Shown one piece after another: positions 1,495-63,763 of a stretch of 64,000 bases of DNA. Numbering within the stretch: the stretch's first letter is position 1; each line of letters begins with the position of its first letter. The stretch covers positions 107,921,669 through 107,985,668 of the forward strand of contig OX439036.1 of assembly GCA_949317995.1 (NCBI GenBank), read 5' to 3'. The notes below the pieces were generated by a model. The model did no database searches. It was given only the letters and a program-made list of their open reading frames with translations, and was not told where the DNA came from. This DNA is from Acholoe squamosa. Taxonomy: Eukaryota > Annelida > Polychaeta > Phyllodocida > Polynoidae. The position numbers were made by a program, and so were the translations under genes.

Positions 1495-2337
1495 CATTTA
1501 GGCTGTTCACAGATAGCACAGATCTATACCGATATGGTGGGAGACCCAGTGAACGCAGACATTACTAAAATTGGGTTACCAGCCAGGTACCACTGATCAC
1601 GGTATCAATGGGTACTACCAGTTGCCCATAAGAAATCTGTAGTGAATAAAAAAAAAATTCTCATTGGTTGAAAATCCCTCGGGGCCACCTCGCGGTGTGT
1701 GCCAGGGTGTAAAAGCTGTAGGACATGGTGAGGCAAAAAGAAAGTTGTGTGTTTCAGTGCTGTAACTGTAGGGTAGGTCGTTTTTCTTTGTTTTTTTTTT
1801 TTTTGTAAAAAATTGAATTACTTCAAAGACTCGTGATGACACGGGGCCGAGTCACAGTAACTTAGGGATAACTAAATTTTTGACTAAAAACTTAATATTT
1901 TCTTCAAAAATAAAGAAAAAAAGTTGGGGTCAGCCCTGTTTTGCTAGATCTATAGGGCTGGGTTATCGTTAATTTTATTTTTTAGCCCAAGAGAACCCCG
2001 GGTGCAGTGTTGCCGAAATGACGCTGTAATGTCGTCCAGAGTGGCCTGCAGACAGCGATCTCAGCTTTCTATTGATTTCTAAAGGTACTTATCCAATAGG
2101 AAGGCGAAGTCACGCGAGACGCGAGACGCCTGGGGTTATCGCATTTTCGCCCAGCGCTATTTGCAATGTTGTGTGAATGGCGGTGCTGCGCACCATCAAC
2201 AAAATAGCTCATTTCTCAGAAACTAAGGGGTGTCTGACCTTCATATTTTATCCACACTTCAAGTAGCAGTTATATATCATCTGGCTAAGGTGCTTTGGCG
2301 GCCAAGCATCTAGTTTCAATGTCGTTGATGAGGGTAC
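1495..2337. other. No gene; outer flank of inverted repeat
   Basis: No supported ORF is present. From about 2100 the sequence (GGCGAAGTCACGCGAG, then CTGGGGTTATCGC) is a diverged inverted counterpart of 5150-5225, so it may be the decayed outer part of the foldback at 2338-4915. Confidence 0.4.
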
Positions 2338-4915
2338 CTCTCCCCAATAGAACCAAAGTTATGAAGTGATGTCACCCTGCCTCACCCACAGTCCCACCAT
2401 TCCACCACCCTCAGTCTCACCCACAGTCCTACCATTCCATATTGACAGTGGAATTAGTACCCACGTACCGCGGCCCTGCCATTTCCTGTTATCCAGGTAC
2501 GGGCTATTACGGGTAGTATAGTAATAGTGCTAGCCCCTATAAACTTGGCCTCAGGGCATGTTTTTTTTTTACAACAGGGGGTGGGAGTGGTTAGCTACTT
2601 TTGTATTTCTACTCTACTCCCGTTCCCCTCCCGTACTAAGGGAGTGGTCATTTATTATCAACAGGGGCCCGGGGGGGGGGGTGGGTTTGAAGGGGGGGCG
2701 TAAAAAATTCTGACCCCTCTCGAGGGGGGGTGCTAAAAAAATTTTGACCCCTCTTGAGGAGGGGCTAAAAAAATTTACCCCCGCGCTACTATAGATCAAA
2801 GAGGGGGCACGAAAACTCTCCGTGCCTCTGGCGCGGGGGACGCAAAATTTTTTTACCGCCGTCGAGGGGGGGGGGAAAAAATTTCCGTGCATCCCACGAT
2901 AACCCACCACCCCCCATGTTGATAAATAATGACCACTCCCTAAGGTAGGGGATGGGGGGGTCCCTCTCCCCGAATTCACTCGATCCTCCCTGGCCCCAAC
3001 CAATTTTAGGGAGTGATCATTATTTTTCATCAGGGGGGGTGGTAGGTTTGAGGGGGGGCGTAAAAATTTCAGACCCCTCAGAGGGGAGGGGGGCTAAAAC
3101 AGTTTTAACCCCTCCTGGGCTAGGGGGGGGATCTTTTTCAAAGAAACCTGCAAAAGTAAAAGGGCACATTCCCACACAATTTTCGGCCCTTCAAGGGGGG
3201 GCAAAAAAATTTAAATTTAAATTTTCTTGCGTGTGCCTAATCCTAGGTCTACACTTATGTACATGGGCAATTGCCTACTGCAGCTTGTCACTGCTGGCGA
3301 CCTTTCTAATATGAGTTGGGCGGCGATCAACTTACTCCGGAACTAAGGGAGTGATCATTTTTTAACAGTGGGGGGGGGCAGTGGGTTTGAGGGGGGGGCA
3401 GAATTTTTTCAATCCCTCAGATGGGGGGGGGTCAAAATAATTTCACCTGTTTTCGTTGGAAAACCCAGCACATTACTATTCCGAGGTAGCAGGTTGTCCC
3501 ATGGGCGCGGCCATTGCTGGAGCTTGTTACCAGCGAGTTCTACTGATAAGACCTATCAGATGGGTACCAGTTGGCTCCTGAAGGACCGCAGTGAATAGAT
3601 TGGGGTTCTCTCATTGGCTAATGAATAAACCTGTTAAGTCCATATAGGTTAAAAAGGCACATTCCTGCACAATTTTCACCCCTTATGGGGGGGTCAAAAA
3701 AAGTCAATAGAGTAAAAAATATGGTTTACCAGGTTAGGCGGGGAGGGTTTGGTGGATGTATGGGTTAGGTGGGAGGGTCAGATATATATGTAATGGTTTG
3801 TTCAGTGTATCGATTTGGATGGCTCTTAGGCTCGCTTAGTAACTATAAGCAACACACAACACGAGAGTTTCATTCCATCTGCTCGGATGGCCTTTATTGA
3901 CTCCTGAGAAGGTCTAGTAACATGCGTATCTGGACTGGACGAGGTCCAGTCCCCTTCTGCTGAACCCTCCCCGCCTAACCAGGGTAGGGCTAAGACTGTT
4001 CGGACTATGTCTGGGTTGGGCTAAGACTGTTTGGACCATGTTCGGGTTAGGCATAGACTGTTTGGAGTTTACCCAATTTGCTCTGTCCCCTTTTCTGGTT
4101 CCCATCCCCACCTAACCTGGTAAACCATATTTTTTACTCTATTGACTTATTTCTAGGCCTATTTCAAAGGTAGGCCTAGCCTAGGCCCTTTCGGGGAGGG
4201 CCAAGGGTTTAAATTTGGTCAACATGTTCTACTGCAGTTAGGGAGTGATCATTTTTTAACAACACGTGGGGAGGGGGGGCTTATAGGTTTGCACACGGAC
4301 GTGTGGAAAAAAATCGACCCCCCTCTCAAGGATGGAAAATTTTTTTGACCCCCCCCCATAAGGGGTGAAAATCGCGCAGGAATGTGCCTTTTTAAAAAAA
4401 TTTTGCGCCCCCCGCGCCAGAGGCGCTGAGAGTTTTCGCACCACCTCTTTGATCTATAGTAGCGCGGGGATAAATTTTTTTAGCCCCCCCTCAAGAGGGG
4501 TCAAAATTTTTTTAGCACCCCCCCTTGAGAGGGGTCAGAATTTTTTACGCCCCCCGTTCAAACCCACCACCCCCCTGGGCCCCTGTTGATAATAAATGAC
4601 CACTCCCTTAGTACGGGAGGGGAACGGGAGTAGAGTAGAAATACAAAAGTAGCTAACCACCCCCACCCCCTGTTGTAAAAAAAAACAATGCCCTGAGGCC
4701 AAGTTTATAGGGGCTAGCACTATTACTATACTACCCGTAATAGCCCGTACCTGGATAGTAGGAAATGGCAGGGCCGCGGTATGTGGGTACTAATTCCACT
4801 GTCAATATGGAATGGTGGGACTATGGGTGAGACAGGGTGAGACTGAGGGTGGTGGAATGGTGGGACTGTGGGTGAGGCAGGGTGACATCACTTCATAACT
4901 TTGGTTCTATTGGGA
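2338..4915. mobile_element. Foldback-type inverted repeat, arms about 0.5 kb
   Basis: The left arm 2338-2869 reappears as its near-identical reverse complement at 4395-4915. Landmarks shared by both arms are CCCAATAGAACCAAAG, CACAGTCCCACCATTCC, GGCCCTGCCATTTCCT and CGTACTAAGGGAGTGGTC. The spacer 2870-4394 contains further G-rich family J pieces and an inner inverted pair (3703-3749 with 4104-4146, around GGTTTACCAGGTTAGG). The open frames inside are low-complexity translations of G and A runs and are not genes. It could be a foldback transposon or an inverted segmental duplication. Confidence 0.65.
3000..3460. repeat. Family J G-rich repeats
   Basis: Copies begin with GGGAGTGATCATT, continue with TATCAACAGGGGGG and GGTTTGAGGGGGGG, then GACCCCTC motifs. 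Similar pieces occur at 2638-2830, 4236-4390, 9478-9545, 21545-21660 and 48480-48660, in both orientations. They are dispersed fragments of one repeat family; the full-length element is not visible here. Confidence 0.5.
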
Positions 4916-12012: not shown

Positions 12013-12271
12013 TCTGTTCGTTGATGTACTTATTAGCAGTTCAAACTGATGTGCCATTGACACTAGGAACTCAATAAGATTGTATATTAATTTGTAGGGT
12101 CAGACAGATACCCTTCTACCTTTCTATAGTGGTGCATTGGTGCTAGGAACTCAATAACACTTTATATCAATTTGTAGGGTCAGGGTTAGAGCGTTACATC
12201 TGTTAGACTGATAATAATCTCTGGTTATTCACCAGCGCTGCATTCATGCATTATAATGACGAAAGAGCAAA

Positions 12272-13117
12272 ACTGCCCCTCCCCACACTGTAAAAACATG
12301 TGTTGAACTTACTGTCCCTCCCTACACTGTAAAGAATGTGTGTTGAAATTACACTGCCCCTCCCTACACTGTAAAAAACTGTGTTGTAATTATACTGCCC
12401 CTCCCTACACTGTAAAAAACTGTGTTGTAATTACACTGCCCCCCCTAAACTGTAAAAATGTGTGTTGAAATTTCACTGCCCCTCCCTGCACTGTAGAAAC
12501 ATGTGTTGAACTTACTGTCCCTCCCTACACTGTAAAAAATGTGTGTTGAAATTACACTGCCCCTCACTGCACTGTACAAAATGTGGGTTGAAATTACACT
12601 GCCCCTCCATACACCGTAAAAACATGTGTTGAACTTACTGTCCCTCCCTACACTTTAAAAAATGTGTGTTGAAATTACACTGCTCCTCCCTACACTGTAA
12701 AAACATGTGTTGAACTTACTGTCCCTCCCTACACTGTAAAAAATGTGTGTTGAAATTACACTGCCCCTCCCTACACTGTAAAAACGTGTTAAACTTACTG
12801 TCCCTCCCTACACTATAAAGACATGTGTTGAAATCGATGTCCCTTCCAACACTGTAAAAAATGTGTGTTGAAATTACACCGCCCCTCCCTTCACTGTAAA
12901 AACATGCATTGAACTTACTGTCCCTCCCTACACAGTAAAAAAACGTGTGTTGAAATTATACTGCCCCTCCCTACACTGTAAAAATGTGTGTTGAAATTAC
13001 ACTGCCCCTCCCTTCACTGTAAAAACATGTGTTGAACTTACTGTCCCTCCCTACACTGTAAAAAATGTGTGTTGTAATTACACTGCCCCTCCCTACACTG
13101 TAAAAAATGTGTGTTGA
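12272..13117. repeat. Satellite, period about 40 bp, about 21 copies
   Basis: The unit reads approximately CTGCCCCTCCCTACACTGTA followed by AAAAATGTGTGTTGAAATTA. Two subtypes alternate, one with AACATGTGTTGAACTTACTG, giving a partial 80 bp higher-order period. The array is contiguous with no unique spacers. Confidence 0.85.
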
Positions 13118-17900: not shown

Positions 17901-19775
17901 AGCATTCCATTTGTTCATTATGCTGACCAGTGGGCATGGTGTACTCCAGCATTCCATTTGTTCATTATGCTGACCAGTGGGCATAATGTACTCCAGCATT
18001 CCATTTGTTCATTTTGCTGACCAGTAGGCATAATGTACTCCAGCATTCCATTTGTTCATTTTGCTGACCAGTGGGCATGGTGTACTCCAGCATTCCATTT
18101 GTTCATTTTGCTGACCAGTAGGCATAATGTACTCAAGCATTCCATTTGTTCATTTTGCTGACCAGTAGGCATAATGTACTCCAGCATTCCATTTGTTCAT
18201 TTTGCTGACCAGTGGGCATAATGTACTCCAGCATTCCATTTGTTCATTTTGCTGACCAGTAGGCATAATGTACTCAAGCATTCCATTTGTTCATTATGCT
18301 GACCAGTGGGCATAATGTACTCGTGTATTCCATTTGTTCATTATGCTGACCAGTGGGCATAATGTACTCCAGCATTCCATTTGTTCATTATGCTGACCAG
18401 TGGGCATAATGTACTCCAGCATTCCATTTGTTCATTATGCTGACCAGTGGGCATGGTGTACTCCTGTATTCCATTTGTTCTTTATGCTGACCAGTAGGCA
18501 TAATGTACTCCAGCATTCCATTTGTTCATTATGCTGACCAGTAGACATAATGTACTCCAGCATTCCATTTGTTCATTATGCTGACCAGTGGGCATAATGT
18601 ACTCCAGCATTCCATTTGTTCATTATGCTGACCAGTGGGCATGGTGTACTCCTGTATTCCATTTGTTCTTTATGCTGACCAGTAGGCATAATGTACTCCA
18701 GCATTCCATTTGTTCATTATGCTGACCAGTAGGCATAATGTACTCCAGCATTCCATTTGTTCATTTTGCTGACCAGTGGGCATAATGTACTCCAGCATTC
18801 CATTTGTTCATTATGCTGACCAGTGGGCATAATGTACTCCAGCATTCCATTTGTTCATTTTGCTGACCAGTGCGCATAATGTACTCGTGTATTTCATTTG
18901 TTCATTATGCTGACCAGTGGGCGTAATGTACTCCAGCATTCCATTTGTTCATTATGCTGACCAGTGGGCATAATGTACTCCAGCATTCCATTTGTTCATT
19001 ATGCTGACCAGTGGGCATAATGTACTCCAGCATTCCATTTGTTCATTTTGCTGACCAGTGCGCATAATGTACTCGTGTATTCCATTTGTTCATTATGCTG
19101 ACCAGTGGGCGTAATGTACTCCAGCATTCCATTTGTTCATTATGCTGACCAGTGGGCATAATGTACTCCAGCATTCCATTTGTTCATTTTGCTGACCAGT
19201 GGGCATAATGTACTCCAGCATTCCATTTGTTCATTTTGCTGACCAGTGAGCATAATGTACTCCAGCATTTCATTTGTTCATTATGCTGACCAGTGGGCAT
19301 GGAGTACTCGTATATTCCATTTGTTCATTATGCTGACCAGTGGGCATGATGTACTCCAGCATTCCATTTGTTCATTATGCTGACCAGTGGGCATGGACTA
19401 CTCCTGTATTCCATTTGTTCATTATGCTGACCAGTAGGCATAATGTACTCCAGCATTCCATTTGTTCATTATGTTGACCAATGGGCATAATGTACTCCAG
19501 CATTCCATTTGTTCATTTTGCTGACCAGTGGGCATAATGTACTCCAGCATTCCATTTGTTCATTATGCTGACCAGTGGGCATGGTGTACTCCTGTATTCC
19601 ATTTGTTCTTTATGCTGACCAGTGGGCATGGAGTACTCCAGCATTCCATTTGTTCATTATGCTGACCAGTGGGCATGGTGTACTCCAGCATTCCATTTGT
19701 TCATTATGCTGACCAGTGGGCATAATGTACTCCAGCATTCCATTTGTTCATTATGCTGACCAGTGGGCATAATGT
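17901..19775. repeat. Satellite with 47 bp period, about 40 copies
   Basis: The unit runs AGCATTCCATTTGTTCATTA, TGCTGACCAGTGGGCATAAT, GTACTCC. Successive starts at 17901, 17948 and 17995 are exactly 47 bases apart. Variants (CATGGTG for CATAATG; CTCGTGTATT for CTCCAGCATT; TTTTGC for TTATGC) recur in clusters, which shows local amplification. There are no unique spacers, so it is not CRISPR-like. The unit aligns without gaps to the inner part of family F elements, and the flank 17872-17900 (GTCTTGCTGCACCAGTAAAT) also looks like family F sequence. Confidence 0.92.
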
Positions 19776-19917
19776 ACTCGTGCATAACAACTGCTATCAT
19801 GTACTGATGTACACTTTTGTGATAAAAAAAAAGATATGACAGCTCGCTACCTGGTGATCCACTTCTGCGCTCATAAATTCAGTTCAATTGAATATCTAGC
19901 GAGTAACACATGCATCA

Positions 19918-29339: not shown

Positions 29340-30750
29340 AGTAGTCTTGGTAAGGGGGGACAAGATTGCCATCTAAGGGGGACAAGATGACTGTGAGGGG
29401 CAAGATGGCTGTCTTAGGGGGGGGGGAAGATGGCCATGTAAGGGATACAAGATGGGCATCTAAGGGGGACAAGATGACTGTGAGGGGCAAGATGGCTGTC
29501 TTGGGGGGGGAAAGATGGCCGTGTAAGGGATACAAGATGGGCATCTAAGGGGGACAAGATGGGCATCTAAGGGGACAAGATGGCAATCTAAGGGAGACAA
29601 GATGGCCGGCTAAGGGGAACAAGATGGCTGTTTAAAGGGGGACAAGATGGCTGTCTAAGGGGGGACAAGATGGCTGTTTAAGGGGGACAAGATAGCTGTC
29701 TAAGGGGGACAAAAGGGCCACCTGATGGGGACAAGATGGCTGTCTAAGGGCAGACAAGATGGCTTTCGGGCTTCCCTAGCCCAATTAAAAAGGTCTACGT
29801 CTACTCTTTCCTATCCCCTCGGATGTGTGTGGGGCACATATGTGTGGGCACTGACACATTCCTCTTTGAAATTGTGTAATGTTCTCACCATGAATATGAC
29901 CTTAGCTGTCGAAATGGCGTTAAACATCTATTACTCACTCAGATGGCTGTCTAAGCACGACAAGATAGCTGTGTACGAGGTGACAAAATGGCCATCTGAG
30001 GGAGACAAGATGGTTGTCTAAGGGGACAAGATGGCTGTCTAAGGGGACAAGATGGCTGTCTAAGGGGGGGACAAGATGGCTGTCTAAGGGGGAGAAAATG
30101 GCCATCTAAGGGGGACAAGATGGCCGTATGAGAAGGGCAAAATGGCAGCCTACAGTAGATGACCTCACACTTCCCTCTAGCGGATGCTCTATACCAGTCA
30201 GCATTGATTAGGTTGTAGCAGCAGCTAGTCATGTTGGTCAGGGACATGAGGTCAGGGTCAGGGACTGAGGGGACAAGATGGCTGTATAAAGGGGCAAGAT
30301 GGCCTTGTTAGGGTGAAAAAATGGCTGTGTAAGGGATACAAGATGGCCATCTAAGGGGGACAAGATGGCCATCTAAGGGGACAAGATGGCAATCTAAGGA
30401 AGACAAGATGGCCGACTCAGGGGAACAGGATGGCTGTTTAAAGGGGGGACAAGATGGCTGTCTAAGGAGGGACAAGATGGCTGTCTAAGGGGGACAAAAT
30501 GGCCACCTGAGGGGGACAAGATGGCCACCTGAGGGGGACAAGATGGCTGTCTAAGGGGAAAAGATGGCTGTCTAAGGGGGGACAAGATGGCTGTCTAAGG
30601 GGGGACAAGATGGCTGTCTAAGGGGGGACAAGATGGCTGTCTAAGCACGACAAGATAGCTGTGTAAGGGTGACAAAATGCCCATCTGAGGGAGACAATAT
30701 GGCTGTCTAAGGGGACAAGATGGCTGTCTAAGGGGGGGACAAGATGGCCG
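29340..30750. repeat. Minisatellite, 22-25 bp unit, about 50 copies
   Basis: The unit is GGGGACAAGATGGCTGTCTA plus AGG, with variants CCATCTAAGG and GGCCACCTGAGG. It is interrupted by a SINE at 29765-29940 and by a unique-looking block (CAGCCTACAGTAGATGACCT to TCATGTTGGTCAGGGACATG) at about 30140-30248. That block recurs at 30768-30872 and, diverged, at 30931-31045. Long frames through the array are by-products of the repeat. Confidence 0.85.
29765..29940 (+). mobile_element. SINE, ACTC-tail subtype, inside the minisatellite
   Basis: CGGGCTTCCCTAGCCCAATT begins and ATCTATTACTCACTC ends the copy. AGATGGCT occurs on both sides, but since the array unit contains the same bases it cannot be counted as proof of a target duplication. 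Confidence 0.8.
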
Positions 30751-31213
30751 TATGAGAAGGGCAAAATGGCAGCCTACAGTAGATGACCTCACAGTTCCCT
30801 ATAGCGGATGCTCTATACCAGTCAGCATTGATTAGGTTGTAGCAGCAGTTAGTCATGTTGGTCAGGGACATGGCAGGAGGTGCACCTGAGGTTACTATGA
30901 CACCAGTAGTGGGGGGACAAGATGACGGCCTTCAGTAGATGACCTCACAGTTCCCTATAGCGGATGCCTTATACCAGTCAGTATTGATCAGGTTGTAACA
31001 GGAGCTATGGTGTTAGCCGGGGGTTCTAGTCATGTTGGTCAGGCACATAGCAGTAAGCGACACCCCGGGGTTACTATGATACCAGTAGTGGGAGAGGAGA
31101 GCTGGACACAGACAGACTGAGCACATTAATATACCATAGATATATCACATAGATACTAAGCACACACAAGGCACAAGGTAATCCTAGTGTGAGATTCTAC
31201 AATAGAACCATAG
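30751..31213. repeat. Copies 2 and 3 of the block beside the minisatellite
   Basis: AGTAGATGACCTCACAG, TAGCGGATGC, ATACCAGTCAG and TCATGTTGGTCAGG repeat at 30778 and 30938 in the same order as at 30150. This shows that array expansion carried flanking DNA along. Confidence 0.65.
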
Positions 31214-46125: not shown

Positions 46126-48265
46126 GGGCCCTCTATATAGCCTCTATGTGCACCACACAGCCTATATAGCCATTATGTGCACCACACAGCCTACATAGCC
46201 TCTTTGTGCACCACACAGCCTATGTAGCCTCTATCTGCACCACCCAGCCTATGTAGCCTCTATGCACACCACACAGCCTATGTAGACTCCCTGTACACCA
46301 CATTACCTATATAGCCTCTATGTATGTCACACAGCCTATGTGCATCGGACAGCCTATATCTGCACCACAGAGCATGAATAGCCTCTATGTACAACCAACA
46401 GCCTGTATAGCTTCTATGTACACCACACATAGCCTCTATGTGCACCACACAGCCTATTTGGCCTCTACTTGTACCACACAGCCTATATAGCCACCATGTG
46501 CATGCCACTAGCCACCATATGCATGCCACAACCTATATAGCGTCTCCATGTCCACCACACACCCTATATATCCTCTATACCCACCAGCAACCTATGTAGC
46601 CTCTTTGTACATGGCACAGCCTATAGCCTATATGTGCATGACACAGCCTACATGGCCTCTATGTGCATCACACAGCCTATGTGGCATCTATGTACACCAC
46701 ACAGCCTATATAGCCTGCATGACCACCACACAGCCTATAATTATAGCCTCCATGTGCACCACACAGCATATATGGCCTCTATGTGCACCACACAGCCTAT
46801 ATAGCCTCTATGTGCACCACACAGCCTATATAGCCTCCATGTGCACCACACAGCATATATGGCCTCTACGTGCACCACACAGCCTATATAGCCTCTATGT
46901 GCACCACACAGCCTATATAGCCTCCTTGTGGACCACACAGCCTATATAGTAACTATGTACTCCCAACAGCCTATGTAGGCTCTATGTACACTGCATAACC
47001 CATTTAGCCTCTATGTGCACCACACAGCCTATATAGCCTCTATGTGCAACACACAACATATATAGAATCTGTATGCACCACACATCCTATATAGCCTCTC
47101 TGTGCACCACACAACCCATATAGCCTCTATGTGCACCACACCACACAGCCTATATAGCCTCTATGTGCACCACACAGCCCATTTAGCCTCTACGTGCACC
47201 ACACAGCCTATATAGCCTCTATGTGCAACACACAACATATATAGCATCTAGATGCACCACACATCGTATATAGCCTCTCTGTGCACCACACAACCCATAT
47301 AGCCTCTATGTGCACCACACAGCCTATGTAGCCTCTATGTGCACCACATAGCCTATATGACCTCTATGTGCATCACACAACCTAAATGGCCCCCTATGTT
47401 CACCACATAGCCTATATGGCCTCTATGTGCACCACACAGCCTACATAGCCTCTATGTGCACCACGCAGCCTATATGGCCTCTATGTGCACCACACAGCCT
47501 ATATAGCCTCTATGTGCACCACACAGCCTATATAGCCTCTATGTGCACCACATAGCCTATATGACCTCTATGTGCACCACACAGCCTACATAGCCTCTAT
47601 GTGCAGCACACAGCCTATATAGCCTCTGTGTACATCACACAGCCTATATAGCTTCTATGTGCACCACACAGCCTATATGACCTCTATGTGCATCACACAG
47701 CCTATATAGCCTCTGTGTGTATCACATAGCCTATATAGCCTCTATGTGCACCACACAGCCTATATCTATATGGCCTCTGTGTGCATCACACAGCCTACAT
47801 AGCCTATATGTGCACCACACAGCCTATACAGCCTCTGTGTGCATCCATAGCCTATATAGCCTTTATGTGCACCACACAGCCTACATAGCCTCTATGTGCA
47901 CCACACAGCCTATATGGCCTCTATGTGCACCGCATAGCCTATATGGCCTCTGTGTGCATCACACAGCCTACATAGCCTCTATGTGCACCACACAGCCTAC
48001 ATAGCCTCTATGTGCACCACATAGCCTACATAGCCTCTATGTGCACCGCATAGCCTATATGGCCTCTATGTGCACCACATAGCCTATACAGCCTCTGTGT
48101 GCACCACACAGCCTAAATGGCCCCCTATGTGCATCACACAGCCTATATGGCCTCTATGTGCATCACACAGCCTATAAATTATCTCCTCTATGTACATAAC
48201 ATGTACATGACATAGCCTATATAATAACCTATGTGTGCACCACACAGCCCATGTAGCCACAAAAT
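46126..48265. repeat. Array with 29 bp period, about 70 units
   Basis: The unit is TATATAGCCTCTATGTGCAC plus CACACAGCC. Spacing is 29 bases where measured (46801 to 46830), with many point variants and some indels. Since 29 is not a multiple of three, all three frames are visited and give repeats such as YIASMCTTQPI; these frames are not genes. The array is contiguous and has no spacers. Confidence 0.9.
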
Positions 48266-52972: not shown

Positions 52973-53149
52973 CTACCGGCGATCACGGTGTCGATCACGG
53001 TCGCGCCGGTCACGGGGGCTGTGTGAGGAGTGAGAGGAGGATCGTGCCGTTTCTCTAGAATGGCTGACGGCTGAGTGACTTGATGACGATGTGTGGCTGG
53101 AGCTGGCGTGAGCTGTACGCCGCAAGAAGTCATCAACATCACGCTCGTA
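52973..53149 (-). CDS. YTHDC1: YTHDC1 last coding exon
   Basis: 58 residues from [12 protein letters not shown] through Ser/His repeats to [15 protein letters not shown], then TAG at 52973-52975. The VDDFLRR block and an RD-rich end are also found in vertebrate YTHDC1. Acceptor ATCTTTCAG/TACG, phase 0. The minisatellite at 53150-53680 starts right at this acceptor. Confidence 0.9.
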   Translation of the reverse strand, partial: YERDVDDFLRRTAHASSSHTSSSSHSAVSHSRETARSSSHSSHSPRDRRDRDRHRDRR

Positions 53150-56100
53150 CTGAAAGATAACAAATCAAATGTCATTTAACTCCCCTCATACTGAAATATA
53201 ACAAATCAAATGTCATTAACATTACGCTCATACTGAAATGTAACAATCAATTGTCATCAACAATACGATTATACTGGAATGTAACAAATCAAATGTCATC
53301 AACAACACAATCGTACTGGAATGTAACAAATCAAATGTCATCAACAACATGATCGTACTGGAATGTAACAAATCAAATGTCATCAACATCACGCTTATAC
53401 TGAAAAGTAACAATCAATTGTCATCAACAATACGATGGTACTGGAATGTAACAAATCAAATGTCATCAACAACATGATCGTACTGGAATGTAACAAATCA
53501 AATGTCATCAACATCACGCTTATACTGAAACAACAAATCAAATGTCATCAGCAACACGCTTGTACTGAAATATACAATCAAATGTCATCAACATCACGCT
53601 CGTACTGAAACATAACTCAAATGTCATCAACATCAGGCTCGTACTGAAATGTAACAATCAAATGTCATCAGTGTCAAAGTGAAATGAAGGGCATGGTTTT
53701 CCGGTATTTTTTGAAACACTATAGAACAATAGCAAACCTTCGTTTTTCAAGCTAAAAGCGAGGCTTATATTACCTTATAAAGTCAGTCGCGAGGTTTACA
53801 TAGAGGCGCAGCTTATATGTGGGAATTTACAGTAGTAAGAATTGGCATGGTTCAGTGACTTTTATCTTTACTATCCTCTATATTGAGTCTTTCAAATTTG
53901 ATTCTCTCTTATATTAATTTACTCAGTAGATGAATTACAGAAAATATACTGGTTTTGTCTACAATATCCACTACACATGTAAATCACTACTATACCACCA
54001 CAGAACACGTCCAGGGATACATGCTACTGGGGAATATCATTCAACGGTATGCGCCTGAATAATCCAGTCAATGCTTGATTTAAAATTCGGCGACACATGC
54101 AATGGTTCAGAGACTAGGGACAACACTGGGAATCATCCAGGGGCTCATCAATATCTCATGCCTTACCACTAATCGACATAACAGGATGGAAATCTTGTTA
54201 CAGAACTATTAACCACCATGACGGATAAAACACATGCTGTTCCTAAATGTTTAAAATGAAGAGGGGAAAACATACCAGGTTTTCCAACAATACAACTTAA
54301 TCTACTAGGAAGGAGATCTTGTTTACAGAATTACCATCTTCTGTAACCAGATGTCGGTGTACCATAAATTCCCTCATATAAGCCACACGCCCACGCCCTT
54401 GAATAAGTCGCCCCCTGAGTTTGGAAAATTCTAAAAATCTTAAAATGGCATAACTTTTTCTAATGAATGAATCTTCAAATTCAAAAGGTTGTGGGGTCCT
54501 ATGGGCGCCCGGAACCCCCCCCCCCCCCCCCCCCTGTAATGCCTGAACAGTTGGGAAAATATTGGGTAATACCTGGGTTGGGTTTCCATACAAGCTGCGA
54601 CTATCGTGGGAATTTATGGTAACACAGTCGGGTTGCTATGTACACCACCACACCACATACAGGCTTATAGTGTGTGAATGTGGTCACTTACTCGTCCTAC
54701 CTGGTAAGGGTCCGTCTTGGCCGTTCGCCTCTCCGAGGACCGTGAGTGGGAGGAGTGGGAGGTATGTGAGGTGCGGGATGGTGGAGGGTAGTTGATCGGG
54801 GGTGCGTAGTCACGGTGTGTGTGTGCCATCCTGTCGTAGTGGCTCGTGTAGGGCTGCGGGGGTTCCATGTGGCCATATCCAGGCGGGGGCTGGAAGGGGA
54901 AGGACAAATATGGATTGTTACTAACAATAGCAGTTTGTTATTCTTTTAATACTACTAATAGATTTATAACTATATGATGCATGTCTAATTCAGTTGGATA
55001 AATTTCAAACCCAATACTTCAATTGTGAATACAGATACTGTTATATCTAACACCGTGAATTCTCTCGTAAAAGCCGCATCCACTTATAAGCGGTACCCTG
55101 AGCTAGAGAGGAAGCTATAGGCTGCGTCACTCCCGACCTGAGGGCTGAAAATTGATGCTTTAGTTCTCTTCTATAGGGTTAAATACCCCTTATAAGCTGC
55201 ACCTAGACTTTGGGCCGATCCTGTAAGCCGCATAATGATTTGAGTACTGGCACGTGCCGCAGCTTATATGAGAGAATTTACGGTACTTGTTGATTTCTTT
55301 TTTGTTGTTGATTATTTTAGAATTACAAATCATATCATTTTGTGATTAAACATTTACTAACACACTACATGGTTATGATCTTTGATCGATCAACAAATTA
55401 CCCTGTAGAACTTGAGTGTCTAATATTAGACTTGTGTGCATATAAAGCCTATAAGAGATGTTAGGATACCTACTAAGAGGGAACTTACTGGCCCGCTATA
55501 GGAGGGCATCGCCATACGCGGTGGGTGCGACTGGAACTCCCGCATGTAGTCATTGTAGTTCTGAATAGAAACAAACGCGGATTAGGGAGAACTTAATTTG
55601 ATGTCATTTAATACAAGTCCAATAATTTGATATTATGCACATAATTGTAACATGTCTATGTTAACTTGCAGATTATGAGATCATTAACTTTGATTGTTAA
55701 CTGTAAGGCATTACTTAATTTAAAATAAAACAAGATCTATGAAATTTACTTCCGAGCCATAAAGCTTGCATTTATAATATTTCACTTTCAAAAACGAATT
55801 CAAATGTTAAAGGCAACATTTATATTATGTTCATCTTATCAAATTTCAATTTAACTTCATGCAAAAAAATCCGTGAGGAGAACTTGTAAAATCCTTTGTT
55901 GTAGAAAACTATGTAACAATGTAAATACTAACGCCATTAATGAAAGTATCCTTTCTCACCCCTCCATACCGTGGTGTCGACCTGCAATCAACCGGTCAGA
56001 CAATGTCAATTACACATACAGGAATCAAAGTGGCTAAGCACAAGTACTGTAATCTCCCGCGTATAACACTCATCTTATATGCTGGGTTTTAGTTCTCCCT

Positions 56101-59100
56101 GGATCACTAACTACCATAATCTCCCGCGTATAAGACGCGTCTTATTTGCGAGGTTTTAGTTCTCCTTGGATCCACAAGGGGGACACTAAGACCTTTCTTT
56201 TGATATCTTACACTACCACTACTTTATAATTTGACATAATAGATTCAGGAGAGTCTGGATGGGTACTAACTATACATAGCTTTTTGAATTTTGAAAATGC
56301 ATTCAGTAGAAGAAAAGTTACGGATTTTTCATTTTTATGAGCATAATTCAAAACTCTAGGTGCGTCTTATACGCACACTGCTGGAGATTACGGTAACTAT
56401 GACTGGCCAAAGAGTGCCTCAAAATTATTATTTTCTAGATGTTACATATTCCCAAAACCTTGTTTCACATACTTCATTATTCTAATGTCCAGGGCTGCAT
56501 TTATGCATCATGACGACCAATGGCCTGATACAATAATGCATTAGGCCACACCAAAAAAATTAGTTCTATGGATTTATGTTTTTAAAAAATGGTGCGAGCG
56601 AGCAATTTTTTTTTCTTTTTAAAAAGGATTTTTTGGCGTCAAAGGGATTCCTTGCTGGAAACGTGATGGGCAAGCAATTTATTTGCAGAACATCACAAAT
56701 AGAAACCTAGCAAAAAATGATGCAAGCGAAATACATAGACAAACTTTTTTCAAAGAAATTTTTTTTCCAAAACATGGAGAGGGCGATCTGTAGACCAGCT
56801 TATTGTTTTTTGGTGTGGCCTTAGCAATTATTAAGTATAAAGAGGCACGTACCTGTCGCTTCCACGTCTGTCCCTTTGCGAATAGGCTGAAATACAAAGA
56901 CAAAGGTGTTTTTTTTCTCAACACTTTTGATTGGACATACATAACCTAATTCAACCTAACCTATGAAGATTGACCCAGATGGATCTTCAGAAAAAGAAAG
57001 TGAGGAGTTTGCAGGTATGATAAAAGCCGCACCCTTTACTTGAAGGGACCCTATTGGCCACACCAGGGGCTTGATATCATCCCGGTATCCTCTTTCCTCC
57101 CACTTCACTTTGGCTGCTTGTACATGCATATAAGATGAAAACTGAAATTTTGGTACTGATCTATAAGCCGCACCCTACAGTTCAGAACCTATTATAAGCC
57201 TCACTTTCATTTGAGTTCTGGTACTAGCTGCAGCTTATAAATAGGAGGGTGTGAGGGCGGCATGAGGGGGTGAGGGCAGCATGGGGGAGGGTGTGTGAGG
57301 GCGGCATGGGGGGTCAGGGCGGCATGAGGGGGTGAGGGCGGCATGAGGGGGTCAGGGCAGCATGGGGGGTGTGAGGGCGGCATGAGGGGGTCAGGGCAGC
57401 ATGGGGGAGGGTGTGTGAGGGCGGCATGGGGGGTGAGGGCGGCATGAGGGGGTCAGGGCGGCATGAGGGGGTCAGGGCAGCATGGGGGGTGTGAGGGCGG
57501 CATGAGGGTGTGAGGGCAGTATGGGGGGTGTGAGGGTGGCATGGGAGGGTGTGAGGGCAGCATGGGGGGTCAGGGCGGCATGGGGGGTGTGAAGGCAGCA
57601 TGGGGGGGGGGGGTCAGGGCAGCATGGGAGGGTGTCAGGGGGGCATCGAGGCAGCATGGGAGGGCTTCAGGGTGGCATCAGGGCCTTATGGGGGGGGGGG
57701 GGGGTCAGGGCAGCATGGGAGGGTGTATGGGCAGCATGGGGGGGTTTGTTTGTTTGTTTAACGTCCGGGGGCCATCGAGGAACTCATTCAAGAATTTTAA
57801 ACTATTCAATAGTAATGGTAGGCTGCGGGCCTACCTCGGGTTTGCGCATAGATGAGTGGATGGGTGTGTATGCACGCGTGCATATATTTAGGTGTCTGCT
57901 TGTAGCAGTGGGACATGGCTCAAGGCCTCTCTTTATCGTGCTGCCTCATGCAGGTAAAATGTCGCAAACTGTAGACACATCACCCTGTCGGTCACATTAT
58001 CCTGACACTGACGGACCAGCCATTCTTTAATTTTTTTTTTATAAATTATATGTACCGTAATCTCCCGCGTAGAAGACGCGTTGCGCGTATAGGACGCACC
58101 CCCTTCTTGGGAGGAGCATTTTCGCCTATAAGACGCACCTCTTAGGGCTCAAATTTGTAAATTTAGTACATTTCTATAGTAAAATTACCCCTCGTATAAG
58201 ACGCACCCCCTTCTTGAGAGTATGCTATAAGACGCACCAGCATTTTGTTTGGCGTAGAGGACGCGTCTTATACGCGAGAGATTATGGTATATATGATCTA
58301 TATGTACTTATATAAGTTTGGTTTTTGAGGAAGTTCAGGAGTTCTTTTGTTTCTATTGTGTTGAAGACAGCTTTCAGTGTTGTTGCATTTTTAAGATATT
58401 TTCTTCTGTTGCTTGCAGTCCTTCGACAGTTGAGCAAGATATGCTTAACTGTGAGTTCAGTCTTGCATTGTTGGCATGGGAGGGTGTGAGGGCAGCATGG
58501 AGGGGGGGGGGGTGTGTCAGGGGTAGCATTGGGATGTGAGGGTAGCATGGAAGGGTGTGAGGGCAGCATGGGAGGGTGTGAGGGCAGCATGGAGGGGGGA
58601 TGTGAGGGCGGCAAGGGGGCTACCAGGGCGGCGTAAGGGCAGCATGGAAGGGTGTGAGGGCGGCATTGGGGGTGTGAGGGTAGCATGGGGGCTACCAGGG
58701 CGGCATGGGGGATGTGAGAGCCGCATGGGTTTGTGAGGGTGGGATGGGAGTGAGTAATAGATGTTTAACACCATTTCGACAGCTAAGTTCATATCCATGG
58801 CGAGAACTACATTACACAATTTCAGAGGAATGTGTCAGTGCCCGCGCATATGTGCACCAAACACATTGGAGGGGATAGGAAAGAGGAGATATAGACCATT
58901 TTAAGTGGGCTAGGGAAGCCCAGGGCCGTATGGGAGGGTGAGGGCGGCATGGGGGGGGGGAAGTCAGGGCAGCATGGGAGGGTGTCTGGGCGGCATGGGG
59001 GATGCCAATGCATCTTATATGTGGGGGTGTGCCTTCAGATAGGGGATGCACACCTCCTTTTTGCTGACACTTTAATTTGCCCCTAAGACCCTTAATTTGC

Positions 59101-62100: not shown

Positions 62101-63763
62101 GATGAACATAAGTACATCATATCCAATGTGGCTTCAAAAAATGCGAGCAAAACGATGCTTGAAGATGGACAATCGCCCTGCAGAGGCTTCCCACTGATTA
62201 TTCAGAGTTTTAGATGGCTACGATTCAAATGATCTATGGGACATTCATCCACTCTTGAGTGAGGGCACAAAAGGAAACTGAATTTATACATGTCCTCAAA
62301 TTGTCTTAAAAATTGACTTTTGACTAATATTTTAAGAAAAAAAAATATTTGAACTGATATTCAACCTATGAGTGAGAACCCTGCTCTATATCAAATAGTA
62401 TTAGTGAGGAGAAATACAGTACCTGTCCGTCCCTGCCGATCTTGACCGTCTTGTTCTCGTTCCACTGGTTGTACAGGTGAGTAGTCTGGATGAACGGCAG
62501 GTCGCGCCTACAAAATGCCAACGTTCAAAAAAGCATGTTAAATTCGAACAAACTAAATGATAACCTGGAAAGTTAACCAATTATATAAGTTTTTAGCCCT
62601 ATAATGAATAACATTGCTCCTTTCATTACTACTTCAAGCTACAGTAATCTACCGTATAAAAGGTGCATCCCGTGTTTAAGACAGACCCTGAGTTATAGAA
62701 ATAGGGCACAGCTGGGGCTTCATTTTTGACAGTTTAGTACTGATCTATAGCAAAAGTACATGTAACCCAGACTTTGCGCCGATTCCATAGGGTGCAGGGG
62801 TGCCTCTGATTCAGATAGAAGACAAGCCTCAGACACGGGAGATTATGGTAGATCATTATAAGTACAGTCCTAAGTGTTTACAAATGTACCGTAATCTCTC
62901 GCATAGAAGGCGCGTCTTCTACGCCAAACAAAATACTGCTGGGTCTTATAAGCGGGAGGGACACTGCCTTGAGTCTAAGGTGTGCCTTATAGGGGGGGGG
63001 GGTATTTTTACTATAGAACAGTACTAAACTGACAAAAATCTGCCCTCAGAGGTGCGCCTTATACGTGAAACAGACCTCCCTGATTTGGGGTGCGCCTTAT
63101 AGGCGAGCTGCGCCCTATACGTGAGATATAACGGTAATTAATTTACTGAGTGAACAAGTGTAGATGTTATTCAGATGAATACAAAGTATCCATAGTGATA
63201 CTGCAGTCGTTACCTGTTGATCCAGTCCAGTTTGAAGACCCCGCTAAGGGCCTTAGCACTCAGTCCAGGGGGCAGCACCCATCTGATCGGGGGATGGTCC
63301 TTGTCTGCTTCTGCAGCAATCCGAGCAAACCCTGCAAGCAAGATGCGAGTTGTTTAATGGATATAGCCCTAGTCAGTAACTCGACAAGCTTGCATCCATG
63401 CATCATGACAACGCAACCCTCTTTTTTGTCTGTAGTTACTTGTTTATTTGATTATTTTGGGCCCCAATGAATCCTCAAAAATGGGGGATGAGCCCCCTTC
63501 TTTTCTAAGCCCTGAATCCGCCATTGTTACGAGTTACTTGCATGGGCATGATGCATTAATGCACTATCGGCATTTAAAGGGTTAAAGACAAAATAATATT
63601 TGTATAGTTTAGTGCTGGTTACAACCTTGCACGATCCATTCTTGTGTTGTTAAGTTTAACACCTGGAGCTGTTTATAAGAATGAATGAATTTATGAATGG
63701 ATTCTAACCTTGAAACTTGCCGCTCTCCTTGACCGAGAAGATCAGAATAACACTCCGACACTC
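52973..63763 (-). CDS. YTHDC1: YTHDC1, nuclear m6A reader, 3' ten coding exons (partial)
   Basis: YTHDC1 binds N6-methyladenosine in nuclear RNA and affects splicing and export through SR proteins. Ten exons were joined: 63709-63763, 63214-63331, 62423-62507, 61839-62029, 59260-59351, 56853-56886, 55960-55981, 55489-55560, 54701-54889, 52973-53149. They give 1035 bases, 344 residues plus stop, in one frame with GT-AG sites. The first four encode most of the YTH domain: [28 protein letters not shown] (its Trp is the expected second m6A cage residue), [20 protein letters not shown] and [10 protein letters not shown]. Then come [23 protein letters not shown], a Pro/Tyr/His/Ser-rich exon and the end [12 protein letters not shown] plus an RD/RS-rich tail. 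These parallel human YTHDC1 ([15 protein letters not shown]). The N-terminal half, including the first cage Trp, lies beyond the window. Confidence 0.93.
53131..53680 (-). repeat. 41 bp minisatellite made of splice-acceptor copies
   Basis: About 13 units of 40-42 bases, the first being the real exon boundary. On the minus strand each unit holds a pyrimidine-rich ATTTGATTTGTTA-type stretch, TTTCAG or TTCCAG, then a variant of TACGAGCGTGATGTTGATGA, the first bases of the last coding exon. Every unit keeps the CAG. The array therefore places about 12 acceptor-like sites in front of the real one. Confidence 0.88.
54359..54621. mobile_element. Family B element in the last intron
   Basis: TACCATAAATTCCCTCATAT and CGTGGGAATTTATGGTA are the ends. 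It contains a long C run and AATGAATGAATCTTCAAATT. It lies in the last intron, between the minisatellite and the penultimate exon. Confidence 0.6.
54701..54889 (-). CDS. YTHDC1: YTHDC1 exon, Pro/Tyr/His/Ser-rich
   Basis: 63 residues, [20 protein letters not shown] to [11 protein letters not shown]. Low-complexity segment matching the Pro/His/Tyr-rich part that precedes VDDFLRR in vertebrates. Acceptor CTTCCAG, donor CAG/GTAGGA, phase 0 at both ends. Confidence 0.9.
55052..55285. mobile_element. Family B element, well preserved
   Basis: CACCGTGAATTCTCTCGTAA and ATGAGAGAATTTACGGTA are the ends. TATAAGCTGCACC-type motifs repeat inside in both orientations. Confidence 0.7.
55489..55560 (-). CDS. 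YTHDC1: YTHDC1 exon with NYNDYMREF
   Basis: 24 residues, [20 protein letters not shown] to YSGP. NDY-REF is also present in human YTHDC1. Acceptor TTCTATTCAG, donor CCA/GTAAGT, phase 0. Confidence 0.92.
55960..55981 (-). CDS. YTHDC1: YTHDC1 22-nt microexon
   Basis: GTCGACACCACGGTATGGAG plus GG, coding (R)STPRYGG. It is required to bring the phase-2 end of 56853-56886 to the phase-0 start of 55560. Acceptor TTGATTGCAG, donor GGG/GTGAGA. Confidence 0.8.
56046..56396. mobile_element. Family A elements, one inside the left end of another
   Basis: Two left ends (TACTGTAATCTCCCGCGTAT at 56046, TACCATAATCTCCCGCGTAT at 56112) share one right end (CTGGAGATTACGGTA, 56396). This suggests insertion or recombination between copies of the long subtype. 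Confidence 0.6.
56542..56823. mobile_element. Family G element in a YTHDC1 intron
   Basis: TTAGGCCACACCAAAAAAAT and TTTTTTGGTGTGGCCTTA are the ends; AGGGCGATCTGTAGACCAGC parallels 6190-6205. It ends about 30 bases from the donor of exon 56853-56886. Confidence 0.7.
56853..56886 (-). CDS. YTHDC1: YTHDC1 34-nt exon
   Basis: Codes (A)[10 protein letters not shown](R). Acceptor TTTGTATTTCAG, donor ACAG/GTACGT. The phases (1 in, 2 out) fit both neighbours exactly. Confidence 0.82.
57240..57737. repeat. G-rich minisatellite, 17-19 bp unit, part 1
   Basis: The unit is GTGAGGGCGGCATGGGGGG or GTCAGGGCAGCATGGGG, about 27 copies. The same unit continues at 58478-58748 and 58922-59005, so one array has been split by insertions. 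Frames through it are repeat by-products. It lies in the YTHDC1 intron 56887-59259. Confidence 0.85.
57738..58040 (-). mobile_element. SINE-like element with AAAC tail
   Basis: Read on the minus strand it ends GGACGTTAAACAAACAAACA, with TGAGTTCCTCGATGGCCCCC before it, and starts near a poly-T/A stretch at 58030. It is the long version of the fragment at 16875. Inserted in the G-rich minisatellite. Confidence 0.6.
58053..58289. mobile_element. Family A element, 237 bp
   Basis: TACCGTAATCTCCCGCGTAG to ATACGCGAGAGATTATGGTA. The same length as the copies at 6327 and 14903. Confidence 0.8.
58290..58477 (-). pseudogene. Non-LTR retrotransposon ORF2 C-terminal fragment
   Basis: The minus strand encodes [17 protein letters not shown] followed by [13 protein letters not shown] and about 30 more residues. 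The C-x2-C-x8-H-x4-C arrangement is the cysteine/histidine motif found near the C-terminus of many LINE-type ORF2 proteins. The fragment is joined on its 5' side directly to the G-rich minisatellite (the Pro-Cys junction reads out of GGCATGGGAG) and is cut on its 3' side by a family A element. Confidence 0.72.
58478..59005. repeat. G-rich minisatellite, part 2, split by a SINE
   Basis: Units of GTGAGGGCAGCATGGGAGG run 58478-58748 and resume 58922-59005. The SINE occupies 58750-58921. Confidence 0.8.
58750..58921 (-). mobile_element. SINE, ACTC-tail subtype
   Basis: Minus orientation: GGGCTTCCCTAGCCCACTTA at 58921 downward, tail GTTAAACATCTATTACTCAC at 58750. Body and tail match 24377. Confidence 0.8.
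59260..59351 (-). CDS. YTHDC1: YTHDC1 exon with [13 protein letters not shown]
   Basis: Arg/Asp-rich segment [20 protein letters not shown] to DPYDRD. The frame requires a phase-2 exon before it, which 61839-62029 supplies. Acceptor CCTGATCAG, donor GATG/GTGGGT. Confidence 0.85.
60176..60248 (-). other. YTHDC1: Candidate 73-nt cassette (poison) exon of YTHDC1
   Basis: Bounded by TTATAGAACTCAG and CTG/GTATGT on the minus strand. Entered in phase from the previous exon it reads [20 protein letters not shown] and AYIL without a stop. Being 73 nt, it shifts the next exon to a frame that meets TGA after six codons. The main transcript must skip it; inclusion would end the protein early, upstream of five further junctions. 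It may instead be a chance exon-like sequence. Confidence 0.35.
60249..61838. other. YTHDC1 intron, nothing else recognised
   Basis: No exon, RNA gene or repeat element I can support. A short inverted pair (GAGAACCGTGCGA / TCGCACGGCTCTC) lies at 61089 and 61140. Confidence 0.4.
61839..62029 (-). CDS. YTHDC1: YTHDC1 exon, end of YTH domain
   Basis: 64 residues starting [20 protein letters not shown], which match the end of the YTH fold, then a basic Arg/Pro/Gly linker (NSRRAPVG to PPRRMEPPR). Acceptor TTCTACTCAG, donor CTAG/GTTAGG, phase 0 to 2. Confidence 0.93.
62423..62507 (-). CDS. YTHDC1: YTHDC1 exon, YTH domain
   Basis: [20 protein letters not shown] and VKIGRDGQ, a typical YTH segment. 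Acceptor TTTTGTAG, donor CAG/GTACTG. Confidence 0.95.
62640..63135. mobile_element. Two family A relatives in a YTHDC1 intron
   Basis: 62640-62851 is eroded (TACAGTAATCTACCGTATAA to GACACGGGAGATTATGGTA). 62886-63135 is better kept (TACCGTAATCTCTCGCATAG to TACGTGAGATATAACGGTA). Confidence 0.65.
63214..63331 (-). CDS. YTHDC1: YTHDC1 exon, YTH domain with cage Trp
   Basis: [31 protein letters not shown] and VFKLDWINR. The Trp in IRWVLP is at the place of the m6A-binding Trp. Acceptor CTTGCTTGCAG, donor ACAG/GTAACG. Confidence 0.96.
63709..63763 (-). CDS. YTHDC1: YTHDC1 exon, YTH domain beta strand
   Basis: [18 protein letters not shown], the first exon of the gene visible in the window. Acceptor GTTATTGCAG, donor CAAG/GTTAGA. 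No further YTH exon could be found between 63764 and 64000. Confidence 0.95.

What the first reader, a model, noticed from the sequence alone, without database searches (positions are those of the whole stretch)
53131..53680. Minisatellite built from the gene's own splice acceptor
The last YTHDC1 intron begins next to the last exon with about 13 units of 40-42 bases. Each combines intron pyrimidine tract, CAG and about 20 bases copied from the start of the coding exon. The first unit is the functional acceptor. All units keep the CAG, so a dozen decoy acceptors precede the real site, in a gene whose product controls splicing. They could modulate last-intron splicing or create alternative starts of the RD-rich tail.
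Basis: partly seen in the sequence, partly recalled or inferred. Interest (0 to 1): 0.75.

Follow-up and report, generated by a model that had tools for sequence, protein, structure and literature searches.

The report
Tandemly copied splice acceptor in YTHDC1
In this animal's YTHDC1 gene the junction between the last intron and the last coding exon is repeated thirteen times in a row, a kind of repeat already described in lancelets as a 'mirage'; the extra copies look like leftover DNA that is probably spliced out, and using any of them would cut off the protein's tail.

Summary
Thirteen head-to-tail units of 39-42 bp (53129-53663, minus-strand gene) each carry 18-21 nt of intron end including CAG, plus the first 20-21 nt of YTHDC1's last coding exon. 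The unit next to the exon is the real acceptor; the other 12 keep CAG and a branch-like ATGAC 19-22 nt upstream. The gene is YTHDC1. Mitochondrial gene order suggests an annelid (pattern recalled). No decoy can start the RD tail: all 12 reach an in-frame stop after 4 or 8 codons, so their use would truncate the protein. CAG retention is not significant (19 of 42 columns invariant; P 0.08-0.11), though power is low; changes in exon-derived copies show no clear codon-position bias. The real acceptor scores highest of 13 on a recalled matrix. Closest known: 'mirage' minisatellites of lancelet genes, reported there not to disturb splicing. Best reading: a new mirage, made by tandem duplication and array turnover, spliced out with the intron. 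Use of decoys is untested; no RNA data were available.

The parts
52973..53149 (-). last coding exon (E11) of YTHDC1: 58 codons [11 protein letters not shown]...RDR plus stop
   Evidence: open frame continuous with E1-E10; translation and stop at 52973
53129..53170 (-). unit 13 (42 bp): functional splice acceptor (CAG, G at 53150) plus first 21 nt of E11
   Evidence: highest acceptor score of the 13 units, 5.92 bits (recalled matrix)
53171..53211 (-). unit 12 (41 bp), decoy acceptor, stop after 4 codons
53212..53252 (-). unit 11 (41 bp), decoy acceptor, stop after 8 codons
53253..53294 (-). unit 10 (42 bp), decoy acceptor, stop after 8 codons
53295..53336 (-). unit 9 (42 bp), decoy acceptor, stop after 8 codons
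53337..53378 (-). unit 8 (42 bp), identical to unit 5; decoy acceptor, stop after 8 codons
53379..53419 (-). unit 7 (41 bp), decoy acceptor, stop after 8 codons
53420..53461 (-). unit 6 (42 bp), decoy acceptor, stop after 8 codons
53462..53503 (-). unit 5 (42 bp), identical to unit 8; decoy acceptor, stop after 8 codons
53504..53543 (-). unit 4 (40 bp), decoy acceptor, stop after 8 codons
53544..53583 (-). unit 3 (40 bp), decoy acceptor, stop after 8 codons
53584..53622 (-). unit 2 (39 bp), decoy acceptor (lowest score, 0.19 bits), stop after 8 codons
53623..53663 (-). unit 1 (41 bp), decoy acceptor, stop after 8 codons; differs from the functional unit in 4 of 42 columns
53664..53670 (-). partial unit TGATGAC at the intron-side edge, the same 7 nt as the unit end; candidate ancestral microhomology and branch-like motif of unit 1
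   Evidence: flanks printed; TRF ends the array at 53670
54701..54889 (-). exon E10 of YTHDC1 (predicted); donor CAG|GTAGGA, phase 0 towards E11
   Evidence: donor score 8.46 (recalled matrix)
53150..54700 (-). last intron between coding exons, which holds the 12 decoy units

Best explanation
It is a 'mirage'-type minisatellite: a tandem duplication that spans the 3' boundary of YTHDC1's last intron and has been amplified to 13 copies. Steps and status: (1) an ancestral stretch of about 42 bp running from a TGATGAC in the intron to the TTGATGAC about 21 nt inside the exon was duplicated, perhaps through the shared 7 nt (inferred from the array's edges). (2) Copying inside the array spread the units (units 5 and 8, 125 bp apart, are identical: shown). 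(3) Because only the exon-proximal acceptor keeps the reading frame (shown), the other copies are intron and free of coding constraint (supported by the substitution pattern). (4) The spliceosome mostly joins E10 to unit 13, the highest-scoring of the 13 acceptors, and removes the array with the intron (inferred from score, reading frame and the published behaviour of lancelet mirages). (5) Occasional use of a decoy would give a protein that ends 4 or 8 residues into the exon and lacks at least the last 51 residues (frame shown; use not tested).
For: Array anatomy and edges. Gene and phase from 11 predicted exons in one open frame; best PDB match YTHDC1, E 1.5e-69. All 12 decoys reach a stop within 8 codons in the phase given by E10. 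Pattern expected of neutral copies: 41 parsimony changes over 42 columns (gaps counted as a state), 11 of them in the 4 CpG columns (2.75 per column against 0.79 elsewhere); exon-derived part 9, 6, 7 changes at codon positions 1, 2, 3; CAG invariant with P 0.084 (all columns), 0.115 (non-CpG columns) or 0.094 (Poisson). Real acceptor ranks 1 of 13 on a recalled matrix. Best donor inside the array scores 2.3 bits against 4.3-9.6 for the ten predicted donors of the gene, so units cannot easily act as micro-exons (recalled matrix). Published precedent: lancelet Adh, globin, troponin C and PGBD5 repeats include exon-intron boundaries and are reported or suggested not to interfere with splicing; copy number differs between globin haplotypes (PMC3087553, PMC3902484, passages). 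[quoted passage not shown]
Against: No RNA reads were available, so splicing past the decoys is inferred. Seven of 12 decoys score 4.1-4.5 bits, above 4 of the gene's ten other predicted acceptors (E1 3.22, E4 2.10, E5 3.67, E8 0.95), and each has a branch-like ATGAC 19-22 nt upstream, so by sequence alone they could be used. The two longest invariant blocks of the unit as drawn, CAGTA and ATGAC, coincide with the acceptor and the branch-like motif, although the longest circular invariant run is not significant (P 0.13). The lancelet globin paper itself notes that the copies could act as cryptic splice sites, and in human duplicated genes 66% of the intron modifications by tandem repeats also have an alternative transcript that keeps the repeat (PMC2812944, passages). 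No relative or second individual could be compared. The rank of unit 13 alone would arise by chance 1 time in 13.
Confidence: 0.8

Rival explanations
1. Regulated decoy switch: the array competes with the true acceptor so that part of the pre-mRNA is spliced to a decoy, giving a C-terminally truncated YTHDC1 (with no downstream exon junction to trigger decay, if E11 is the last exon), with copy number setting the ratio; YTHDC1 itself might tune the choice.
For: Acceptor-like modules (branch-like ATGAC, T-rich stretch, CAG) kept in 12 of 12 decoys; uniform outcome, in-frame stop within 8 codons. Boundary repeats in human duplicated genes often go with alternative transcripts (PMC2812944, passages). 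YTHDC1 is a splicing regulator (recalled).
Against: CAG retention not significant; substitutions look neutral (low power). A candidate m6A motif (DRACH) occurs about once per unit but is not much denser in the array (24.0 per kb) than in the gene region (18.8 per kb) or the rest of the intron (18.4 per kb), and there are 15 on the other strand of the array against 13 on the sense strand. Lancelet mirages reported not to disturb splicing.
Confidence: 0.08
2. Mild splicing burden: decoys are used at low, unregulated levels and the only selection is on unit 13 to stay the strongest acceptor.
For: Unit 13 alone has C at column 15 of the unit and the best score, 5.92 against 0.19-4.49.
Against: Rank 1 of 13 has chance probability 1/13; the scoring matrix is recalled and human-like. 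Not tested against RNA.
Confidence: 0.1
3. Step towards a new exon or intron: parts of the array will be or are already used as exons, as proposed for lancelet globin genes.
For: A published model (PMC3087553, passages).
Against: Best donor inside the array is 2.3 bits; all 12 decoys meet a stop in the phase given by E10.
Confidence: 0.02

Closest known systems
'Mirage' minisatellites of lancelet (amphioxus) genes: Adh3, globins BflGb6 and BflGb9, troponin C, PGBD5 (PMC3087553, PMC3902484; passages read; one attempt to open the original Adh paper by a recalled DOI found nothing held)
   Same: Tandem repeat that spans an exon-intron boundary and includes the splice site; one end of the array is the authentic boundary; copies partly diverged. 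Adh3 units are 10-72 bp, a range that includes 42.
   Different: Annelid (by mitochondrial gene order) rather than lancelet; 13 units of 39-42 bp against 3 and 6 units of 150-160 bp in the two haplotypes of BflGb6; all copies keep CAG whereas many, not all, keep splice signals there; copy-number variation and normal splicing not tested here.
Intron minisatellites and untranscribed exon-4 duplications of earthworm metallothionein genes (PMC12783039; passages)
   Same: Annelid genes with intron minisatellites, and with exon copies that are not in the final transcript.
   Different: The passages read do not say that those repeat units span a splice boundary.
Internal tandem repeats at exon-intron boundaries in human duplicated genes (PMC2812944; passages)
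   Same: Minisatellite expansion at an exon-intron boundary changes what can be spliced.
   Different: There the repeats may form new introns, often with an alternative transcript that keeps the repeat, in primate duplicates; here it is an intron-side array of one gene.
Tandem alternative acceptors such as NAGNAG (recalled)
   Same: Several AGs compete at one acceptor.
   Different: Here whole 42-bp modules with branch-like motif and exon start are repeated, and every alternative gives a stop.

Membership tests
mirage-type minisatellite (boundary-spanning tandem repeat) | tandem repeat whose unit spans an exon-intron boundary and contains the splice site | tested here: met
   unit = 18-21 nt intron + 20-21 nt exon, CAG in 13 of 13; the exon boundary is predicted from the open frame, not from RNA
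mirage-type minisatellite (boundary-spanning tandem repeat) | one terminal unit is the authentic boundary used by the gene | tested here: met
   of 13 acceptors only that of unit 13 opens the terminal exon in the phase of E10
mirage-type minisatellite (boundary-spanning tandem repeat) | units copied within the array | tested here: met
   units 5 and 8, 125 bp apart, are identical; TRF also fits 125- and 167-bp periods
mirage-type minisatellite (boundary-spanning tandem repeat) | end units left out of internal homogenisation | tested here: inconclusive
   tree: units 5, 6, 8, 9, 10 group; end units 1 and 13 fall together (with unit 2) outside it; 42 columns, no support values
mirage-type minisatellite (boundary-spanning tandem repeat) | copy-number variation between haplotypes or somatic instability | not testable with these tools
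   one assembly; one place
mirage-type minisatellite (boundary-spanning tandem repeat) | regular mRNA not disturbed | not testable with these tools
regulated tandem acceptor (alternative 3' splice site) | alternative acceptors used in transcripts | not testable with these tools
   no RNA data
regulated tandem acceptor (alternative 3' splice site) | splice signals conserved beyond the background of the unit | tested here: inconclusive
   not significant and low power: CAG invariance P 0.08-0.11; longest circular run of invariant columns P 0.13
YTHDC1 | YTH domain of the YTHDC1 type | tested here: met
   PF04146 152.6 bits; YTHDC1 chains best in PDB, 238 bits against 127 for YTHDC2 and 41 for YTHDF2

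The most novel reading that the evidence does not exclude
The array is a copy-number-tunable rheostat: twelve acceptor-like decoy modules in the gene of a nuclear splicing regulator divert part of the last-intron splicing to one kind of product, a YTHDC1 without at least its last 51 residues, possibly under feedback by YTHDC1 itself.
Probability: 0.06. Interest if true: 0.8.

Novelty: new member of a known kind. Interest (0 to 1): 0.4.

Why it matters
It is a boundary-spanning minisatellite outside lancelets, in an annelid by mitochondrial gene order, with more copies (13) than the lancelet globin case read here (3 and 6 units). It is also a natural experiment on acceptor choice: twelve near-copies of a working acceptor, each with its own branch-like motif, lie upstream of the real one, and every wrong choice yields the same kind of truncated protein. 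RNA reads would show which acceptor the spliceosome picks among near-identical modules.

Tried and rejected
Alternative starts of the RD-rich tail: rejected by reading frame. Units as micro-exons: unlikely, donors in the array are weak. Selection for CAG: tested, not significant. m6A decoy idea (one TGACA per unit): density 24.0 per kb in the array against 18.8 in the gene region and 18.4 in the rest of the intron, 15 motifs on the other strand; no clear enrichment. Acceptor and branch-like blocks as signs of constraint: longest invariant run not significant, P 0.13.

Background survey in the same genome: 64 loci brought in by searches for the YTH, helicase and kinase families (60 of 236 listed helicase and kinase matches, 4 of 4 YTH matches), 216,057 bases. 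By TRF (period 15 or more) the only array overlapping or within 90 bp of an edge of a coding match was an 18-bp repeat of 2.1 copies in L016, which I set aside. A second test, with 25-nt windows, flagged L025 and L066; L025 was a TA run and an interspersed pair. L066 (a kinase exon, RSK-like by recall) has a 56-bp array of 14.4 copies in the following intron, and a 43-nt stretch over its predicted donor site aligns with the unit (score 31; 4 of 1000 shuffles for the window 1720-1780, 5 of 1000 for 1715-1775, 42 of 1000 for the wider 1700-1790). Against it: a window past the far end of the array, 2720-2800, scores 30 (19 of 1000). The score 31 is reached by 21 of 11,820 windows from 65 other loci. 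Of 13 arrays examined this was the only one whose edge windows beat all control windows, but the winning window lies in diverged intron units, not on the exon edge. So it is suggestive only: a possible decayed donor-side mirage. The other 4 arrays in 52700-64700 score at most 24 against any exon edge of the gene, compared with 84 for the YTHDC1 array itself (no shuffles run for these). Edges of domain matches are only near exon edges, so the survey is insensitive.

Papers: nine searches were answered. I saw all listed hits for (17; 1; 8; 6; 19; 2), but only 15 of 345 for, 8 of 36 for and 10 of 64. Within those listings I saw no title or abstract start reporting such an array in YTHDC1 or a mirage in an annelid; the library lacks most subscription papers. 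PMC4039745, PMC2206037 and PMC10946897 were read in passages and add background only.

Full report
What is there. TRF finds a single array at 53129-53670 with period 42 and 13.2 copies. On the minus strand it divides into 13 units of 39-42 bp. A full unit is 21 nt of intron end (ATTTGATTTGTTACATTTCAG type) followed by 21 nt of exon start (TACGAGCGTGATGTTGATGAC type). All 13 units have CAG. On the intron side the array is preceded by the 7 nt TGATGAC, the same as the end of a unit, and similarity stops there; on the exon side it stops after GATGAC. A DNA search of the own genome (1.48 Gb, 63 contigs) finds the array at one place.

The gene. Eleven exons predicted from the window and about 540 bases beyond it form one open frame. 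The protein matches YTHDC1 in the PDB with E 1.5e-69 and Pfam YTH with 152.6 bits. E10 ends in phase 0, and E11 (53149-52973) gives 58 codons ending in the RD-rich tail. The frame of E11 is closed a few codons upstream of its acceptor (stop-to-stop frame 52973-53164), so unit 13 is the only one of the 13 acceptors that yields the tail. That the start of this exon resembles human YTHDC1 is recalled, not tested.

The organism. The 15,641-bp contig C63 carries, on one strand, nad4L, nad4, nad1, nad3, nad2, cox1, cox2, cox3, nad6, cob, atp6 and nad5 in that circular order (genes named by me from their translations). I recognise the order as the annelid ground pattern from memory. Matches lie tens of megabases along each of contigs C1-C18. 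The species was not identified.

Could the decoys work? Each of the 13 acceptors has an ATGAC, compatible with a branch site, 19-22 nt upstream; for the true acceptor and 11 decoys it lies in the exon-derived part of the neighbouring unit, and for unit 1 in the flank. So each unit is an acceptor-like module. Eight of 13 units have TTTCAG, in line with the earthworm metallothionein acceptor consensus TTTYAGR (PMC12783039, passages); five have TTCCAG, and all 13 have T, not the purine of that consensus, after the AG.

What would a decoy make? In the phase set by E10, 11 decoys give 8 residues and then a stop, and unit 12 gives 4 residues and a stop. A possible second donor 9 nt downstream of the E10 donor keeps the same phase. 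So no decoy can start the RD tail; every one would truncate the protein by at least 51 residues. Whether such a transcript escapes decay depends on E11 being the last exon, which was not tested.

Is there selection on the decoys? On a neighbour-joining tree of the 13 units parsimony counts 41 changes in 42 columns, gaps counted as a state; 19 columns are invariant. The chance that three given columns are all invariant is 0.084, or 0.115 without the four CpG columns, or 0.094 by a Poisson estimate. The four CpG columns take 11 changes (2.75 each, against 0.79 elsewhere). The exon-derived part changes 9, 6 and 7 times at codon positions 1, 2 and 3. This is what non-coding copies under ordinary mutation would show. 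Against this, the two longest invariant runs of the unit as drawn, CAGTA and ATGAC, coincide with the acceptor and the branch-like motif, but the longest run (6, counted round the unit) is not significant (P 0.13). The array is too small and homogenised to be a strong test either way.

How it arose. Units 1 and 2 are closest to the functional unit 13 (4 differences each, against 6-9 for the others), units 5, 6, 8, 9 and 10 form an inner group, and 5 and 8 are identical (no support values). This fits array turnover with the ends left out, as described for the globin mirage BflGb6, without proving it. The shared TGATGAC at both edges is compatible with a first duplication through 7 nt of microhomology, but a leftover partial unit would look the same.

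Comparison with what is known. Tandem repeats across exon-intron boundaries are known in lancelets as mirages (Adh3, globins, troponin C, PGBD5). The passages say that many, not all, copies contain splice signals that could act as cryptic sites, that copy number differs between globin haplotypes, that Adh3 is somatically unstable, and that Adh3 and globin data suggest no interference with regular splicing (PMC3087553; PMC3902484). In human duplicated genes, by contrast, repeats at exon-intron boundaries may form new introns, and 66% of the intron modifications also have a transcript that keeps the repeat (PMC2812944, passages). The structural criteria of a mirage are met here; copy-number variation and undisturbed splicing could not be tested. 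I therefore file it as a new member of a known kind. I saw no mirage in an annelid in the listings, of which searches showed only part of their hits.

Background in this genome. Among 64 loci around exon matches of three families (216,057 bases), by TRF only an 18-bp, 2.1-copy repeat in L016 touches a match edge. One of 13 examined arrays, in L066, may be a decayed donor-side case: the donor region aligns with the 56-bp unit at a score reached by 21 of 11,820 windows elsewhere, but a wider window is weaker (42 of 1000 shuffles) and a window beyond the array's far end scores nearly as well. If real, it would point to a general habit of this genome rather than to a YTHDC1-specific device. A larger survey was not possible.

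Verdict. The regulatory reading is possible, cheap to test with RNA reads, and has no positive evidence yet.

Noticed in passing
L066:1729-2671: Kinase exon (RSK-like by recall) followed by a 56-bp, 14.4-copy intron minisatellite whose unit aligns, weakly, across the exon's predicted donor site: a possible second, decayed boundary repeat.
   Followed up: partly
window 54683-54703 (minus strand): Two in-phase donor-like sites 9 nt apart at the end of E10, CAG|GTAGGA and CGA|GTAAGT, scores 8.46 and 7.04 on a recalled matrix; use of the second would add three residues before the E11 sequence.
   Followed up: partly
G000 contigs C1, C3, C6-C11, C13-C16, C18, C21, C36, C38, C40: 19 of 141 listed kinase matches are near-equal hits to profile positions 55/56/57-263 with a 316-codon open frame; nine of them lie within 200 kb of the start of a large contig and the one on C10 within 190 kb of its end: a possible family near chromosome ends.
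   Followed up: no
window 12271-13117, 17901-19779, 29355-30770, 46133-48176, 57245-57744: The window is rich in minisatellites, e.g. 47 bp x 40 and 29 bp x 70.
   Followed up: no
window 56050-56160, 58040-58300, 62900-63120: By eye, recurrent stretches around 'ATAAGACGCG ... GCGGGAGATTACGGTA' in several introns of the gene, probably a dispersed repeat.
   Followed up: no
L010 about 4450-4850: Long (TA)n-like run in the mitochondrial contig, reading as repeated MY codons.
   Followed up: no
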